DNA of 64,000 nucleotides from the NCBI GenBank assembly GCA_036268875.1, contig DATATI010000066.1, positions 1-64,000 on the forward strand, in the 5' to 3' direction. The position numbers and the translations under genes were made by a program. Shown one piece after another: positions 39,982-47,410 of the stretch. The DNA comes from Polyangia bacterium (GTDB taxonomy: Bacteria > Myxococcota_A > Polyangia > Fen-1088). Positions within the stretch are counted from its first letter, which is position 1, and every line of letters begins with the position of its first letter. The notes beneath the pieces were generated by a model, which was not told where the DNA came from, searched no databases, and was given only the letters and a program-made list of their open reading frames with translations.

Positions 39982-41211
39982 TCAGCGCGCCGCCGTGGCC
40001 GACGCGCCGGCAGAGACGGCGATGGTCACCCGCGCGCCACCCTCTGGCTTGTTTGCTATCTCCAATTGGCCTTTGTGGGCATCGGTGATCCGGCGCACCA
40101 GCACCAACCCCAGCCCCAGCGATCCCACCGGCCGCTCGGCCTCGGCGCCGGCGGCGGGAAAGCCGGGGCCGCTATCCTCCACATCGAACAGCACCAGCCC
40201 GGGCGCGGCGCGCACGCGCAGGCGATCGACGCCGCCGCCATACTTGCGGGCGTTGTCGATCAGGTTCGCCAGCGCCCGCGCCATCAGCGTCGGATCGCCG
40301 GCGAACGCCGCGTCGCCCGCTTCCACCGACAACACACCGGCGGCGACTCCCGCGCGTTCCAGCGCCTTGCGAGCGACGTCGGCTCCGTCCAGCGGCCGCA
40401 CCGCCAACGCGGCGAAGTCGAGCCGCGCGCTGGCCAACAGCTCACCAACCAGGGCGTCGATCTCCATCACCTCGCGTTCGAGTTCGTCCAGCGTATGGGC
40501 GTCGGTGGCGCCGTTGCCCGCGCCGCCGCGGGCCAGCTCCAGCAGCACCCGGATGCGGGCCAGCGGCGTGCGGATCTCGTGCGATACGCCGGCCAAAAGC
40601 TCGCGCTGGTCGGCGATCTGGCGTTCGATCCGCTCGGCCATGTCGTTGATGGCCTGGGCCAGGATGGCAATCTCGCCGACGCGCCACAGCGGCACGCGGG
40701 CCCGTGTCTTCAAACGACCGGCGCCGATCTCTTTCGCCACGTGTACCAGTTCATAAAGCGGCTGGGCGATGCGCCGGGCGATCCTCCCGGACATCGACCA
40801 CAACACCACGCCGACGATCAACACCGTCAGCAGCACGCGGTGTGAACCGTTGCCGTTGTCCATCCGGCGCGACAGCATCCCCACCACCAGCGCGGTCATG
40901 AAGATGGTCGCCCCGAACCACCAGAACAGCCGGCGGTGCAGGTGCGCGCCGAAGTAATGGCGCAAGCGGTGCCGCCGCCGGTTCAGCAGAAACTGCACAT
41001 GCGGCGGCAGGCGCGGATCGATCACCGGCAGGTGGCGACGAAGATGCGCGTGCAGGTGATCATGCAGGTGATCGCGCAGATGATCGCGCAAGTGATCGTG
41101 CAAGTGCGCGGGGTCCTCACGATCGGGGTCGTGGCGATGATCGCCACCGTCGTCGCGGTCACGCTCGGCGCCGTGACGGCGACGATAGCGATCGTGCCAG
41201 GGGCGCTTCAT
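39982..41211 (-). CDS. Sensor histidine kinase with histidine-rich cytoplasmic N-terminus
   Basis: 409 residues. Residues 1-95 hold nineteen histidines, with a four-residue repeat (HLHDHLRDHLRDHLHDHL, 36-53) that would put His in one stripe on a helix. Two transmembrane helices follow (about 96-113 and 126-140) with a loop of about 12 residues, so there is almost no periplasmic sensor. Then HAMP-like region, phospho-acceptor His211 (GVSHEIRTPL), N-box (LANLIDNARKY) and G-boxes (VEDSGPGFP, LGLGLVLVRR). The start ATG overlaps the regulator stop (ATGA). Metal sensing by the N-terminus is inferred from the histidines. Confidence 0.92.
   Translation of the reverse strand: MKRPWHDRYRRRHGAERDRDDGGDHRHDPDREDPAHLHDHLRDHLRDHLHDHLHAHLRRHLPVIDPRLPPHVQFLLNRRRHRLRHYFGAHLHRRLFWWFGATIFMTALVVGMLSRRMDNGNGSHRVLLTVLIVGVVLWSMSGRIARRIAQPLYELVHVAKEIGAGRLKTRARVPLWRVGEIAILAQAINDMAERIERQIADQRELLAGVSHEIRTPLARIRVLLELARGGAGNGATDAHTLDELEREVMEIDALVGELLASARLDFAALAVRPLDGADVARKALERAGVAAGVLSVEAGDAAFAGDPTLMARALANLIDNARKYGGGVDRLRVRAAPGLVLFDVEDSGPGFPAAGAEAERPVGSLGLGLVLVRRITDAHKGQLEIANKPEGGARVTIAVSAGASATAAR
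41051..41108. repeat. 12-bp tandem repeat encoding the HLxD units
   Basis: About five copies of a 12-base unit, CAGGTGATCATG-like (caggtgatcgcg, cagatgatcgcg, caagtgatcgtg), lie in the sensor-kinase N-terminus. They encode the HLxD repeat on the other strand. Slippage could change the histidine number in phase. Confidence 0.75.
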
Positions 41212-41897
41212 CCGGCCGTCTCCTTGGTCAGCACGTAGCCGACCCCGCGCACGGTCTTGATGATCTTCGGCGCCCGCGGATCATCGCCCAGCTTGCGGCG
41301 CAGGTGCGAGACGTGAACGTCGACCGTGCGATCGCTGACGCTGACGTCGTTGCGGCCAGCCTGCGACAGCAATGTGTCGCGCGGAACCACCCGCCCCGGC
41401 CGCCGTGCCAGCGCCACCAGGATGTCGAACTCGACGCCGGTCAATTCGATCGGCTGGCCGCCGACGCGCACCTCGCGAGAGGCCACGTCGACGGCGATGT
41501 CGCCGATGGCCAGCACCGCCTGGGTGGCCTCGGGCGCTGACCGCCGCAGCACCGCGCGCAGCCGGGCCAGCAGTTCTCGCGGCGAAAATGGCTTCGGCAC
41601 GTAGTCATCGGCGCCGATCTCCAACCCCACCACCCGATCGGTCTCGTCTCCCTTGGCGGTGAGCATGATGATCGGGATGCGGCTTTTCGCCCGGATACGC
41701 CGGCAGACCTCGATGCCGTCCATCCCCGGCATCATCACGTCCAGCAGCACGGCGTCGAACACCCCGCCCTCGAGCGCCGCCAGTCCCTGGCGTCCGTCGG
41801 CGGCGTGCAGCAGCGTCACGCCGTTCGGACCCAGGTAACTGGCCAGCAGTTCGTAAAGGCGACTGTCGTCGTCGATGCAGAGGACGCGCAGGGACAA
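41208..41897 (-). CDS. OmpR/PhoB-type response regulator
   Basis: 229 residues: receiver domain with acidic pair CIDDDSR (8-12), phospho-acceptor Asp53 (LLDVMMPGMDG), Thr at MLTAKGD and Lys in DDYVPKPFSPREL; C-terminal winged-helix (TVDVHVSHLRRKLGDD, RGVGYVL). Start is TTG at 41897. It is co-transcribed with the kinase downstream (ATGA overlap) and with the Spy/CpxP-like protein upstream. Most similar in layout to CpxR or RstA. Confidence 0.93.
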   Translation of the reverse strand: MSLRVLCIDDDSRLYELLASYLGPNGVTLLHAADGRQGLAALEGGVFDAVLLDVMMPGMDGIEVCRRIRAKSRIPIIMLTAKGDETDRVVGLEIGADDYVPKPFSPRELLARLRAVLRRSAPEATQAVLAIGDIAVDVASREVRVGGQPIELTGVEFDILVALARRPGRVVPRDTLLSQAGRNDVSVSDRTVDVHVSHLRRKLGDDPRAPKIIKTVRGVGYVLTKETAG

Positions 41898-41908
41898 GGC
41901 GTTTGACT

Positions 41909-42559
41909 CTACCAGCTCCCGTGCCGGCGGCCGAAGCCGCGTCCCAAGCCGCGCCCGAAAAAACGCGGCCCCGACTCGATGATGTCGGCCAGGCGCGTCC
42001 GCTGCTTTTCATCCAGCGCCTCGTGCACCTTGGCGGTGGCGCCGACGAAGGTCCGGCGCAGGTCTTCGATGGCCCGGTCGTGGCGGGCGTAAAGCTCGCC
42101 GAACAGAACCTCGTCGTGGACCGGCTTGCGGAACGATCCGGCCACGTCCTTGCGCGAGGCGCGCATCTCGCCGCGCAGCTTGCTGGCCGCTTCGCGCATC
42201 TCATCGACGGCGGCGAAGACCACCCGTTCCTGCGCGGGCGTCATCTCCAACGGTTCGAGCGCTCCGCGCAGGAACATCCGCCCGCCGAAGCCGCCGCCAC
42301 CGCTGCCCGGACCGAAGTCGTCCGGCCCTTCGCCATCACCGCCTTCACCGCTGTCTTGGCCCTGGCCGTACCCCGGTCCGTTTCCCCAGCGCCCGCGGTG
42401 CCAGTCGCGGTGCGGGAACCCGCCGAAGCCGTGATGGTGGTGTCGCCACCAGCAGCCGCCTCCTCCTCCGCATGGCCCGGCAAAGCAACCATACCGGCGC
42501 GCGCGCGCCATCTTGGCCAGCGCGATGATCCCCAACGTTCCCAGTACACATCCAATCAT
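41909..42559 (-). CDS. Spy/CpxP-like protein with His/Gly-rich region
   Basis: About 216 residues. The N-terminus has a hydrophobic stretch (MIGCVLGTLGIIALAKMARA), a His/Gly/Trp-rich stretch (WWRHHHHGFGGFPHRDWHRG), then a helix bundle of LTxxQ family (EMTPAQERVVFAAVDEM; Arg/Glu/Asp rich to the end). CpxP/Spy-type proteins are periplasmic chaperones that repress two-component sensors and respond to zinc and copper. Start may be ATG 42559 or 42568; AAAGG is better spaced for 42559. First gene of the three-gene two-component group. Confidence 0.8.
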   Translation of the reverse strand: MIGCVLGTLGIIALAKMARARRYGCFAGPCGGGGGCWWRHHHHGFGGFPHRDWHRGRWGNGPGYGQGQDSGEGGDGEGPDDFGPGSGGGGFGGRMFLRGALEPLEMTPAQERVVFAAVDEMREAASKLRGEMRASRKDVAGSFRKPVHDEVLFGELYARHDRAIEDLRRTFVGATAKVHEALDEKQRTRLADIIESGPRFFGRGLGRGFGRRHGSW

Positions 42560-42714
42560 GTCGGTCATCCTTTCTTGGAAGCGTCTCTCGCTCCCGCCAA
42601 GAAGAATGACCACCGCCTGTTAAGAACAGGCCCGGCCTGATGTGAAGAAATGTTAAGCGCGCCAGCCGCCAAAACCCCGAGGTTTCGGGCGCTTTTTGGC
42701 CGTTCGCCGATCCT

Positions 42715-43504: not shown

Positions 43505-43858
43505 GTGCCGCTGATCCAAATCTTCACCTCTGTATCCGAACCAGCAAGCGATACCAAGGCCACGCTGCTGAGCGATCTGTCGCGGCTGCTGGCGGAAACT
43601 TTTCAAAAGCCAGAACGCTGGTCGATGACTTGTCTGCTGCCCAACCTGAGCATGACCTTCGCCGGCCAGGCCGCGCCCTGCGCCTTCGTGGCCATCCGCA
43701 ACGTCGGCAAGATGACACCTGCCCAGACCGAAAAACTGAGCGCCGCCATCTGCCGCCTTCTGTCGCCGGCGCTGGGATTGCCCGCCGATCGCCTCTACAT
43801 CGAATTCGGCGACGTCGACGACTATCGCTGGGGGTGGAACGGTTCAACGTTCGCGTGA
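43505..43858 (+). CDS. MIF / phenylpyruvate-tautomerase family protein
   Basis: 117 residues from a GTG start, with the catalytic Pro directly after the initiator (MPLIQIFTSV), as required in the MIF tautomerase superfamily. The repeat of beta-alpha-beta units is visible (CAFVAIRNVGKM, ADRLYIEFGDVDDYRWGWNGSTFA, the C-terminal part matching MIF). Substrate unknown. Divergent from the FKBP gene. Confidence 0.88.
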   Translation: MPLIQIFTSVSEPASDTKATLLSDLSRLLAETFQKPERWSMTCLLPNLSMTFAGQAAPCAFVAIRNVGKMTPAQTEKLSAAICRLLSPALGLPADRLYIEFGDVDDYRWGWNGSTFA

Positions 43859-43916: not shown

Positions 43917-44465
43917 ATGGATTCGGGGAGGGCTTCGATCGTCACACGCGCGGCGCTGCTGCTGGGACTGTCGATGGCGCTTGGGCTGGCCGCCAATGCG
44001 GTTCGGCCGAATGGCGTCGGCTTGCGATCGTTCGCGGCGCCGACGATTTGCGCGACCACCGGGGCCGCCGGGGCGGCCAGCGCGGCGCCGCCACTGACGG
44101 TGGTGGCGCCGGAAGACGCCGTCGGGCTGTGCGGCGATCCGCAGACCGTCATCGCCGACGTGCGGCCGGCGGGTGAGTTCGCTCAGGGCCACGTCACCGG
44201 CGCCATTCACCTGCCTTGTGCGGCGTCGGGTTCGGTCGCCGACGCCGCCGCCGGGCAACTGGGCGGCCGGCGCACGTTGATTGTCTACGGCGACGACACC
44301 GCCGACGCGCAGGTGGTGGCCGACGAGATGCGCCGTCGCATCAACCGCGCCGATCTGCGCGTGCTGGTGCTGGCCGGCGGCTTTCCCGCCTGGAGCCGCG
44401 CCGGTCTGGCCTGCTCCAGCGGTCCTTGTCCGGACTGCCAGGCGCAGAAGGTTTCGTCGCCGTGA
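43917..44465 (+). CDS. Secreted rhodanese-like protein without catalytic cysteine
   Basis: 182 residues with an N-terminal hydrophobic segment (ALLLGLSMALGLAANAV) and a rhodanese fold: VIADVRPAGEFAQGHVTGAI (about 78-97), ARRTLIVYGDD-like strand, then ADEMRRRINRADLRVLVLAGGFPAW. The active-site Cys position of CxxGxR is Gly (IVYGDDTAD), so classic sulfurtransfer is unlikely. The C-terminal tail has three Cys (CSSGPCPDC). The stop overlaps the next start (GTGA). Confidence 0.82.
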   Translation: MDSGRASIVTRAALLLGLSMALGLAANAVRPNGVGLRSFAAPTICATTGAAGAASAAPPLTVVAPEDAVGLCGDPQTVIADVRPAGEFAQGHVTGAIHLPCAASGSVADAAAGQLGGRRTLIVYGDDTADAQVVADEMRRRINRADLRVLVLAGGFPAWSRAGLACSSGPCPDCQAQKVSSP

Positions 44466-44893
44466 GCCGTCTGCTGCTCGCCGTGCTGCGCTTGGCGCTG
44501 GCCGCGGTGCTGATCGTCGCCGGCGTCCTGAAGCTGCGCGACCCCACCGCCTTCGCCACCGAGATCGCCAACTATCAACTGTTGCCGGCGCTGGCGCCGT
44601 ATCTGGCGGCGGCGCTGCCCGCCACCGAGGTGCTGGTGGGCATGGCGCTGCTGGTCTTTCCGTCGGTCTGGCGGCGATCGGCGGCGCTGGCGGCGGCGGC
44701 GCAGTTCGCGATGTTCCTGCTCGCCGTCGGCTCGGCGTACCTGCGCGGCATCAACATCGAGTGCGGCTGCTTCGGCACCGGCGGCGGTCCCATCACCGCG
44801 CTGACCTTGCTGCGCAACTTGCTGCTGATGGCCGCTGCCCTGGCGGTGCTGCGCTGGGAACGCACGGCGCCCGCCGGCGCGCCGGCGACGTAG
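44462..44893 (+). CDS. MauE/DoxX-like membrane protein
   Basis: 143 residues with four predicted transmembrane helices (LLAVLRLALAAVLIVAGVLK, VLVGMALLVFPSVWRRS, ALAAAAQFAMFLLAVGSAYL, LLRNLLLMAAALAVLRW). The IECGCFGTGG motif between helices is shared with MauE and related DoxX-family redox proteins. GTG start overlaps the rhodanese stop (GTGA); its TAG stop overlaps the next start (TAGTG). With the rhodanese-like gene upstream, a thiol redox role in the envelope is inferred. Confidence 0.8.
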   Translation: MSRLLLAVLRLALAAVLIVAGVLKLRDPTAFATEIANYQLLPALAPYLAAALPATEVLVGMALLVFPSVWRRSAALAAAAQFAMFLLAVGSAYLRGINIECGCFGTGGGPITALTLLRNLLLMAAALAVLRWERTAPAGAPAT

Positions 44894-45711
44894 TGCGTAC
44901 GCTGACCGCCACGCGTGTGCTGTCCAGCATCCGGCGCGGCAGCTCGTGGCCGGTGCTGGTAGAGACGGAAGCGGGACCGCGCCTGGTCAAGTTGCGTGGC
45001 GCCGCCCAGGGCACCGGACCGCTGGTCGCCGAAGTGTTAGTGGCGCTGCTGGCCGAGGCGCTGGACCTGCACGTGCCGGCGCGCACGCTGGTGCAGCTGG
45101 CCGCCGGCACGCCCAGTGACGATCGCGATCAGGAGCTGCGCCAGTTGCTGGAGGCCAGCGTCGGGGTGAACCTGGGCTTCACCATGCTGCCGCACGCCCG
45201 CGACGCCAGCCCGGCTGATCTGGCCGCCGTGTCCCCGTCGGTGGCGGCGGCGATCTTGTGGGTTGATCGCCTGGCGCTGAACCCCGATCGCACCGCCGAC
45301 AATCCCAACCTGCTGCTGTCCGGCGGCGCGCTTTATCTGATCGATCAAGGCGCGGCCTTGCGCTTTCAATACGATTGGCCGTCGGTGACCGAGGACGCCG
45401 CCCGCGCCGACGGCCACTCCGGGCGGCCGCACGTCTTCGGGGCGGCGGCGCGCGCGGCGGACTGGCCGCTGTGGGACAGCCTGTTTGCCGCCCGCCTTGA
45501 CCGCGACGTGCTGGAGTCGGCGGTGGCAACTGTGCCCGACGAATTTCTGCTGCCGCTGCTGTCGCCGCTCAGCGACGGCGCTGGATCGCCGGCGATCGTC
45601 GAGGCTTTGCGCCGTCGCCGCGCGGCTTACGTCGCCTTCTTGTGGAAACGCCTGCAGATGCCGCGCCGGTTCGCGGCCATCGACGATTCGGTCGGTCTGC
45701 TCTCGCGATAA
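44893..45711 (+). CDS. HipA-like kinase family protein
   Basis: 272 residues. N-terminal part VRTLTATRVLSSIRRGSSWP and a Lys-containing strand (RLVKLRGAAQG) resemble the nucleotide-binding lobe. The catalytic region DRLALNPDRTADNPNLLL followed by LYLIDQGAALRF matches the HipA-like kinase family (DxxxxNxDRTxxNPN and IDxG). HipA toxins phosphorylate tRNA synthetases; this domain family's substrate is unknown. Starts at a GTG overlapping the MauE stop (TAGTG). Confidence 0.8.
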   Translation: MRTLTATRVLSSIRRGSSWPVLVETEAGPRLVKLRGAAQGTGPLVAEVLVALLAEALDLHVPARTLVQLAAGTPSDDRDQELRQLLEASVGVNLGFTMLPHARDASPADLAAVSPSVAAAILWVDRLALNPDRTADNPNLLLSGGALYLIDQGAALRFQYDWPSVTEDAARADGHSGRPHVFGAAARAADWPLWDSLFAARLDRDVLESAVATVPDEFLLPLLSPLSDGAGSPAIVEALRRRRAAYVAFLWKRLQMPRRFAAIDDSVGLLSR

Positions 45712-45862: not shown

Positions 45863-47410
45863 ATGTTGATCGCGCAGCTGAGCCTTGCCACCAGCGAACG
45901 CGGTGGCGACTGGCTTTATCGCATCCACGGACCGGGCCGCGCGCTGGCCGAGACCGACGGCACTTGGATGGTCGATGCGCCGCACATCCACCGTGCCCGA
46001 CGCGCGTTGTTGGAAGAGGCCGACATCCTGATCATCAACATGGTGCCGGACGTGGATCTGCGACCGGACATCGCCGCCCGCCGCTCCCGCGGTCAGCGCA
46101 CGGTGTTCGAGCTGAACGACGACGTGGCCCATCTGCACCCGTCGAACCCGTACGCGCGTTTTTACGTCGACCCGTACGAGGTGACCAAGTTGAAGCAATT
46201 GCTGGGCGCCTGCGACGGCGTGCAGTTCTCCACGCCCGAACTGCAACGGATCTATGGCCGGTACGCGCGCGCGGCGGTGGTGTTCATGAACCAGATGCCG
46301 GCCCAGCGGCGCCAGCAGGCGGCCAGCAGCGGCAGCGGCGGTCCGGTGGTGATCGGCTGGGGTGGCTCGGCCGGGCACCTGCCGGATCTGGCGTGGGTGG
46401 CGCCAGCGCTCACCCGCTGGCTGCAGACGCGAGCCAACGTCGAACTGCGCGTCATGGGCGATCCCGCGCTGTTCGATCTGTTCCGCGCGGCGCCGCCGAC
46501 CAAGAAGCGGCACGTCCCGATCGGCGACATCAACGCCTATTATGACTTCGTCACGGGACTCCACATCGGCATCGCGCCGTTGCTAGACAACGGATTTAAT
46601 CGCTCGCGGTCGGACGTCAAGTTCCTGGAGTACGCCTTGCACGGCGCCGCGCCGGTCGTGCAAGACCTGGCCCCTTATCGCGCCACCGTTCGTCATGGCG
46701 AGACCGGCCTCTTGGTGGGCGAGCCGGAGCAACTGATCGCGGCGCTGGATCGCCTGGTCGACGAGCCGCACACGCGTACGGCGATCGCGGCGCGCGCCCA
46801 GGCGTACGTCCAGGGGGAACGTAGCGGCGGCGCCGGCGCCCTGCAACGGCTGAACTTCTATCGCGCGCTTCTGCCCGCCGGGCACGGGGCAGCCCGGACG
46901 GCGCGCGCGCGTTCGGTGTGCGAACAATTGCAGACCATCGACGGCGTCGAGGTTTGCGGACGCCACGTTTCGCTGGGGTTCGGCGGCTACGAAGAACTGG
47001 TCCGCCGCGCGCTGGCCCTGGGCGGCGCCAATCGCGGCGGCGAGGCGGTGCAGCTGCTGGAGCAAGCGGCGGCCTTGCAGACCGACGCTTATCAACCGCT
47101 GGCTTTCGGCGCGGTCTTCGCCCAGCCCGCCGAGCGAGAACACTATCTGCAGCGAGCCCTGGCGCGCGAGCCTCGCAGCCTGTCTTGCTGGATCGAGCTT
47201 GGCGATCAGCTGAACGATGCCGGTGCCTTCGCCGGCGCCTTGCGGGCGTACGCCGGCGCCGCGGAGATCGAGCCCACCTTCGATCAAGCGTACGCCAAGA
47301 CGTCGCTGCTGATGGGCAAGCTGGGCCGCCATCAGGAAGCGCACGAGTTCGGGGCCATCGCGCAAGCCATTCAGAAGCCATTCCTGAACGACGCGCCCAG
47401 CGAGCCCTGA
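45863..47410 (+). CDS. Glycosyltransferase with TPR C-terminus
   Basis: 515 residues. Residues about 1-345 follow the GT-B glycosyltransferase pattern (HLPDLAWVAPALTRWLQTRA, HVPIGDINAYYDFVTGLHIG, PLLDNGFNRSRSDVKFLEYA, then GETGLLVGEPEQLIAALDRL). About 370-510 carry TPR-like repeats (LGGANRGGEAVQLLEQAAAL, EIEPTFDQAYAKTSLLMGKLG). Function probably surface polysaccharide or protein glycosylation; the donor and acceptor are unknown. Not overlapping its upstream neighbour (151-base gap, nothing recognised there). Confidence 0.82.
   Translation: MLIAQLSLATSERGGDWLYRIHGPGRALAETDGTWMVDAPHIHRARRALLEEADILIINMVPDVDLRPDIAARRSRGQRTVFELNDDVAHLHPSNPYARFYVDPYEVTKLKQLLGACDGVQFSTPELQRIYGRYARAAVVFMNQMPAQRRQQAASSGSGGPVVIGWGGSAGHLPDLAWVAPALTRWLQTRANVELRVMGDPALFDLFRAAPPTKKRHVPIGDINAYYDFVTGLHIGIAPLLDNGFNRSRSDVKFLEYALHGAAPVVQDLAPYRATVRHGETGLLVGEPEQLIAALDRLVDEPHTRTAIAARAQAYVQGERSGGAGALQRLNFYRALLPAGHGAARTARARSVCEQLQTIDGVEVCGRHVSLGFGGYEELVRRALALGGANRGGEAVQLLEQAAALQTDAYQPLAFGAVFAQPAEREHYLQRALAREPRSLSCWIELGDQLNDAGAFAGALRAYAGAAEIEPTFDQAYAKTSLLMGKLGRHQEAHEFGAIAQAIQKPFLNDAPSEP

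What the first reader, a model, noticed from the sequence alone, without database searches (positions are those of the whole stretch)
43917..45711. Rhodanese-like, MauE-like and HipA-like kinase in one coupled unit
GTGA and TAGTG overlaps join a secreted rhodanese fold with Gly in place of the active Cys, a MauE/DoxX-like membrane protein with ECGCFG, and a HipA-like kinase. The rhodanese tail has CSSGPCPDC, perhaps a new thiol site. I know no described system with this set; toxin-like control of an envelope redox pair is one speculation.
Basis: partly seen in the sequence, partly recalled or inferred. Interest (0 to 1): 0.6.

Follow-up and report, generated by a model that had tools for sequence, protein, structure and literature searches.

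The report
Redox gene pair beside antitoxin-less kinase
Two of the three genes form a conserved envelope redox pair, while the third is a toxin-like kinase whose whole branch lacks the usual antitoxin gene and which sits beside the pair only in this genome, so the proposed three-gene system is probably not real, though each half has a new twist.

Summary
The three genes, their overlaps, the Gly-for-Cys loop and the CSSGPCPDC tail are all present. The unit is two things. (1) A rhodanese-MauE pair, adjacent on one strand in 43 of 43 readable loci of the class. In the window's group the rhodanese loop Cys is Gly in 19 of 19 members, and a tail CxSG[PA]CxxC is kept in 18 of 19. Relatives that still have the loop Cys already carry a tail CxxC. 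(2) A HipA_2 kinase that lies beside this pair nowhere else. Its more distant homologues in the class are followed by DUF3037, which is the published HipAD / DS-6 / PDC-M66 anti-phage toxin-antitoxin system. The window's kinase belongs to a well supported 14-member clade without DUF3037 that keeps the kinase motifs. Most likely it is a self-restrained descendant of the HipAD toxin that landed behind an unrelated redox operon. The thiol-site guess is supported by conservation, not by chemistry.

The parts
43917..44465 (+). Rhodanese-fold protein with N-terminal membrane segment; catalytic-loop Cys replaced by Gly125; six conserved Cys: C45, C72, C101, C166, C171, C174; tail CSSGPCPDC
   Evidence: PF00581 8e-12; Cys conservation across 45 homologues
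44462..44893 (+). MauE/DoxX-family membrane protein with ECGCFG
   Evidence: PF07291 5.4e-27; CGC in 52 of 52 homologues
44893..45711 (+). HipA_2 kinase of the DUF3037-less clade; K33, E47, N130-x-D132-R133, N137, N139, D151, G153 kept
   Evidence: PF20613 34.8 bits; PADLOC PDC-M66A 5.1e-16; motifs
44462..44465 (+). GTGA start/stop overlap rhodanese-MauE; overlap or short gap conserved in relatives
44891..44895 (+). TAGTG start/stop overlap MauE-kinase; this gene order found only in this genome

Best explanation
Two independent units, perhaps on one transcript. (a) The rhodanese-MauE pair is an envelope thiol redox couple. In this group the membrane-anchored rhodanese domain can no longer do loop-Cys sulfur transfer; its C-terminal CxSGPCxxC, with C45, C72 and C101, carries thiols or a persulfide and exchanges electrons with the CGC motif of MauE, which would pass them to or from the quinone pool, as DsbA/DsbB-type pairs do. 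Shown: the pairing, the conservation of the cysteines, the loop loss. Inferred: location, chemistry, direction, substrate. (b) The kinase shares ancestry with the toxin of the HipAD (HipA_2 + DUF3037) anti-phage toxin-antitoxin system. Its clade lost DUF3037, kept the catalytic residues, and must be restrained in cis or have become a benign Ser/Thr kinase. Shown: the clade, the missing partner, kept motifs. Inferred: kinase activity and self-restraint. The kinase lies behind the pair by lineage-specific juxtaposition.
For: Pair: 43 of 43 loci with both genes readable have MauE on the same strand directly downstream, gap -16 to +64; CGC in 52 of 52 MauE. Rhodanese: Gly loop in all 19 of the window's group, tail CxSG[PA]CxxC in 18 of 19, C45 in all 45 homologues; seven of the eight loci L175-L182 have both loop Cys and an AxxGxCxxC tail. 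Kinase: all 22 class homologues of about 42% or less that were read carry DUF3037 directly downstream, those of about 44-55% none; the DUF3037-less 14 form one clade, 100/100, inside the DUF3037-bearing kinases when rooted on Bacteroides and actinomycete relatives; no DUF3037 in the window's genome or in 11 of 12 other genomes of the clade; K33, E47, N130, D132, R133, N137, N139, D151 kept in both clades and dN/dS 0.17-0.64 in five pairs; no conserved neighbour except synteny within a genus; no rhodanese or MauE near any kinase.
Against: Only one genome of the window's genus is held, so the trio could be conserved inside the genus. Genomes are drafts, mostly MAGs, so absence of DUF3037 is not absolute (G236 has a weak unlinked one). 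Some other, more distant HipA_2 genes (L155, L157, L159-L162, and L193 of Streptomyces) also showed no DUF3037 by tblastn, so lack of the partner is not unique to this clade and the direction of change rests on one tree. No structure was obtained (pLDDT 43 and 38), so thiol proximity is untested. The tail is absent in many more distant pairs, and the Gly-loop group as one clade has only moderate support (87/63).
Confidence: 0.6

Rival explanations
1. The three genes are one functional system in this lineage: the kinase, freed of DUF3037, is controlled by the envelope redox pair or phosphorylates part of it, giving redox-triggered growth arrest.
For: Start/stop overlaps join all three; the kinase has no other partner.
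Against: Kinase and pair unlinked in all relatives examined; the clade's other kinases live in genomes without this rhodanese; the rhodanese cysteines are probably outside the cytoplasm and the kinase inside; such overlaps are common in the window, 8 of 41.
Confidence: 0.08
2. The kinase is still a toxin, held by an unlinked or non-homologous antitoxin, and still serves abortive infection against phages.
For: Kinship with HipAD; PDC-M66A match 5e-16; kept kinase motifs; in Retron-Sda1 the HipA kinase is needed for defence and loss of DUF3037 is toxic (PMC12548924).
Against: No DUF3037 in 12 of 13 genomes; no conserved neighbour; the locus lies among FKBP, MIF, glycosyltransferase and SRAP genes, not recognised defence genes.
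Confidence: 0.2
3. The Gly-loop rhodanese is catalytically dead and its tail cysteines only stabilise the fold or bind a metal.
For: Loop Cys lost; C72, C101 and C166 appear together and could be structural.
Against: 18 of 19 keep the tail CxxC, outside the Pfam domain (66-161); relatives with an intact loop also have it; the pairing with MauE is kept.
Confidence: 0.25

Closest known systems
HipAD / DS-6 / PADLOC PDC-M66 (HipA_2 kinase + DUF3037); PMC13092281, PMC12548924
   Same: Kinase family PF20613, PDC-M66A match, catalytic Lys, NxDRxxxNxN and LIDxG motifs
   Different: No DUF3037 beside it or in the genome; GGS of the N-terminal loop changed to GSS (13 of 14); separate clade
YjjJ / HipH of E. 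coli, a stand-alone HipA-like toxin (PMC9948734, PMC8262856)
   Same: HipA-like kinase with no antitoxin gene beside it
   Different: YjjJ has an N-terminal HTH domain and belongs to the classical HipA tree; P0003 matches only HipA_2
MauE/MauD and DsbB/DsbA type envelope redox pairs (own knowledge)
   Same: Small membrane protein with a conserved Cys motif beside a thiol protein with a membrane or export segment
   Different: The partner is a rhodanese fold, not a thioredoxin fold; no methylamine genes seen beside it
Single-domain rhodaneses such as PspE, GlpE, YgaP (sequence matches in the PDB)
   Same: Rhodanese domain; YgaP is membrane bound
   Different: Loop Cys replaced by Gly; C-terminal CxSGPCxxC; paired with MauE

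Membership tests
HipAD / PDC-M66 | HipA_2 kinase domain | tested here: met
   PF20613 34.8 bits (cut-off 27); PDC-M66A 56.7 bits
HipAD / PDC-M66 | catalytic Lys, NxDRxxxNxN, metal Asp | tested here: met
HipAD / PDC-M66 | DUF3037 partner gene beside the kinase | tested here: not met
HipAD / PDC-M66 | anti-phage activity and toxicity without the partner | not testable with these tools
   needs expression and phage assays
YjjJ / HipH | no antitoxin gene beside the kinase | tested here: met
YjjJ / HipH | N-terminal HTH domain and classical HipA kinase | tested here: not met
   only HipA_2 found in 272 aa
Catalytic rhodanese (sulfurtransferase) | Cys at the start of the active loop | tested here: not met
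   Gly125 here and Gly in 19 of 19 group members
MauE (PF07291) | profile match and CGC motif | tested here: met
   95 bits against 27; 52 of 52 homologues have CGC
MauE (PF07291) | role in methylamine dehydrogenase maturation | not tested
   no mau genes noticed in the neighbourhoods read; the genome was not searched for them

The most novel reading that the evidence does not exclude
A clade of HipAD-type kinases has lost its antitoxin and become self-restrained or benign, a phage-defence toxin turned ordinary signalling kinase; and, separately, a rhodanese group has moved its working thiol from the active loop to a C-terminal CxSGPCxxC tail served by MauE.
Probability: 0.3. Interest if true: 0.5.

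Novelty: new variant of a known kind. Interest (0 to 1): 0.36.

Why it matters
If the DUF3037-less kinases are harmless alone, comparing the two clades would show which residues make the HipAD kinase a toxin that needs an antitoxin; five clade-separating columns are listed. The rhodanese-MauE pair is widespread in this class and no paper found in the library describes it; it would add a rhodanese-based route to envelope thiol chemistry.

Tried and rejected
Selenocysteine: search rows showed in-frame TGA in several rhodanese and MauE matches; nearly all are the ordinary stop codons at gene ends. One case (L084) has TGA before a GACxxC tail; its genome has a SelB, but no tRNA-Sec over the cut-off and no unusually stable hairpin (z 0.83) were found, so it is left unproven. 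A hidden partner of the antitoxin-less kinases: open frames of 40 codons or more within 1.8 kb were compared all against all; only synteny within a genus and antisense shadows of the kinase appeared. Structures: rhodanese alone pLDDT 43.5, kinase with two sequences 38.0, not interpretable and not searched further. A profile search of the kinase in the PDB gave nothing significant.

Full report
What is there. The three genes and both overlaps are as described. Pfam names them Rhodanese, MauE and HipA_2. The window lies in a 6.15 Mb draft genome of 95 contigs. Relatives are unnamed; their sizes, up to 16 Mb in one contig, suggest Myxococcota of the Polyangia type, which is inference. Upstream is a MIF/tautomerase gene (43505-43858), downstream a glycosyltransferase-TPR gene (45863-47410).

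The pair. In the relatives the rhodanese and MauE genes lie side by side. In all 43 loci where both could be read, MauE is on the same strand directly downstream with a gap of -16 to +64 bases, often overlapping. What follows MauE differs from genome to genome. So the conserved unit has two genes, not three.

The thiol site. The rhodaneses differ in their loop. Many have the ordinary loop Cys (YCDxxxxC). The window's group of 19 has VYG there in every member. Eighteen of the 19 carry C-x-S-G-[PA]-C-x-x-C near the C-terminus, and all 19 have C72 and C101; C45, after the membrane segment, is present in all 45 homologues. Seven of the eight loci L175-L182 keep the loop Cys and also have a tail AxxGxCxxC, so the tail CxxC is likely older than the loss of the loop Cys, and the further Cys of CxSG came later. 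The Gly-loop group itself has moderate tree support (87/63). MauE homologues have CGC in 52 of 52. The simplest mechanism is a thiol relay between the tail and the MauE CGC; this is inferred from the motifs and from what is known of MauE, DoxX and Dsb-type proteins, and is not shown.

The kinase. P0003 matches PDC-M66A of PADLOC at 5.1e-16. Relatives of this kinase in Bacteroides, Parabacteroides and Streptomyces globosus, and all 22 class members of about 42% identity or less that were read, are followed by DUF3037. Two papers report this two-gene system, called DS-6 or HipAD, as anti-phage defence; in Retron-Sda1 deleting DUF3037 is toxic and deleting the kinase ends defence. P0003 is different. 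It and 13 homologues of about 44-55% identity form a clade with 100/100 support and have no DUF3037 beside them. Rooted on distant relatives, the clade falls among DUF3037-bearing kinases. DUF3037 is absent from the whole genome in 12 of 13 cases, the exception being weak and unlinked. No other gene is shared by their neighbourhoods beyond synteny within a genus. Yet Lys33, Glu47, Asn130, Asp132, Arg133, Asn137, Asn139 and Asp151 are kept, and dN/dS in five comparisons is 0.17 to 0.64, so the gene is held by selection. The window's own copy has LIDQG where nearly all have LIDHG. A stand-alone HipA-like toxin is known (YjjJ), but of another family and with an HTH domain. Some other distant HipA_2 genes outside the class also lack a detectable DUF3037.

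Are they linked? Of 26 kinase loci read over about 5-15 kb, of both clades, none has a rhodanese or MauE relative of this pair. None of the 12 other whole genomes of the clade has the window-type rhodanese at E<=1e-8. Genomes with both have them apart, 665 kb in G283. The kinase-MauE overlap is one of 8 such overlaps among 41 same-strand junctions in the window. I conclude that the three-gene order is a lineage-specific neighbourhood, possibly a shared transcript, and not a system.

Limits. One genome of the genus; draft genomes; no usable structure; literature limited to the open-access library. No paper found describes the pair or the antitoxin-less clade; that is a statement about the library searched only.

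Noticed in passing
L084:642-644: In a rhodanese of the same family an in-frame TGA precedes a conserved-looking tail GACATCG and would give a U-G-A-C motif; its genome has a full-length SelB but no tRNA-Sec over the cut-off, and no unusually stable hairpin follows. One genome only; may be a plain stop.
   Followed up: partly
43505-43858: A MIF/tautomerase-family gene (PF01187 1.1e-20, proline right after the start) just upstream of the pair.
   Followed up: no
L174, rhodanese tail: One Gly-loop rhodanese ends CASGGCPWP, so it has lost the last tail Cys.
   Followed up: no
L148: A long-branched HipA_2 without DUF3037 is sister to the antitoxin-less clade, perhaps an early offshoot or a decaying copy.
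   Followed up: partly
L002:6001-6834: One of the kinases closest to the window's (52%) lies in a MAG labelled Gemmatimonas, outside the class: transfer or a misbinned contig.
   Followed up: no
39982-42613: Sensor kinase and response regulator beside a Gly/His-rich protein of no Pfam family, looking like an envelope-stress operon.
   Followed up: no
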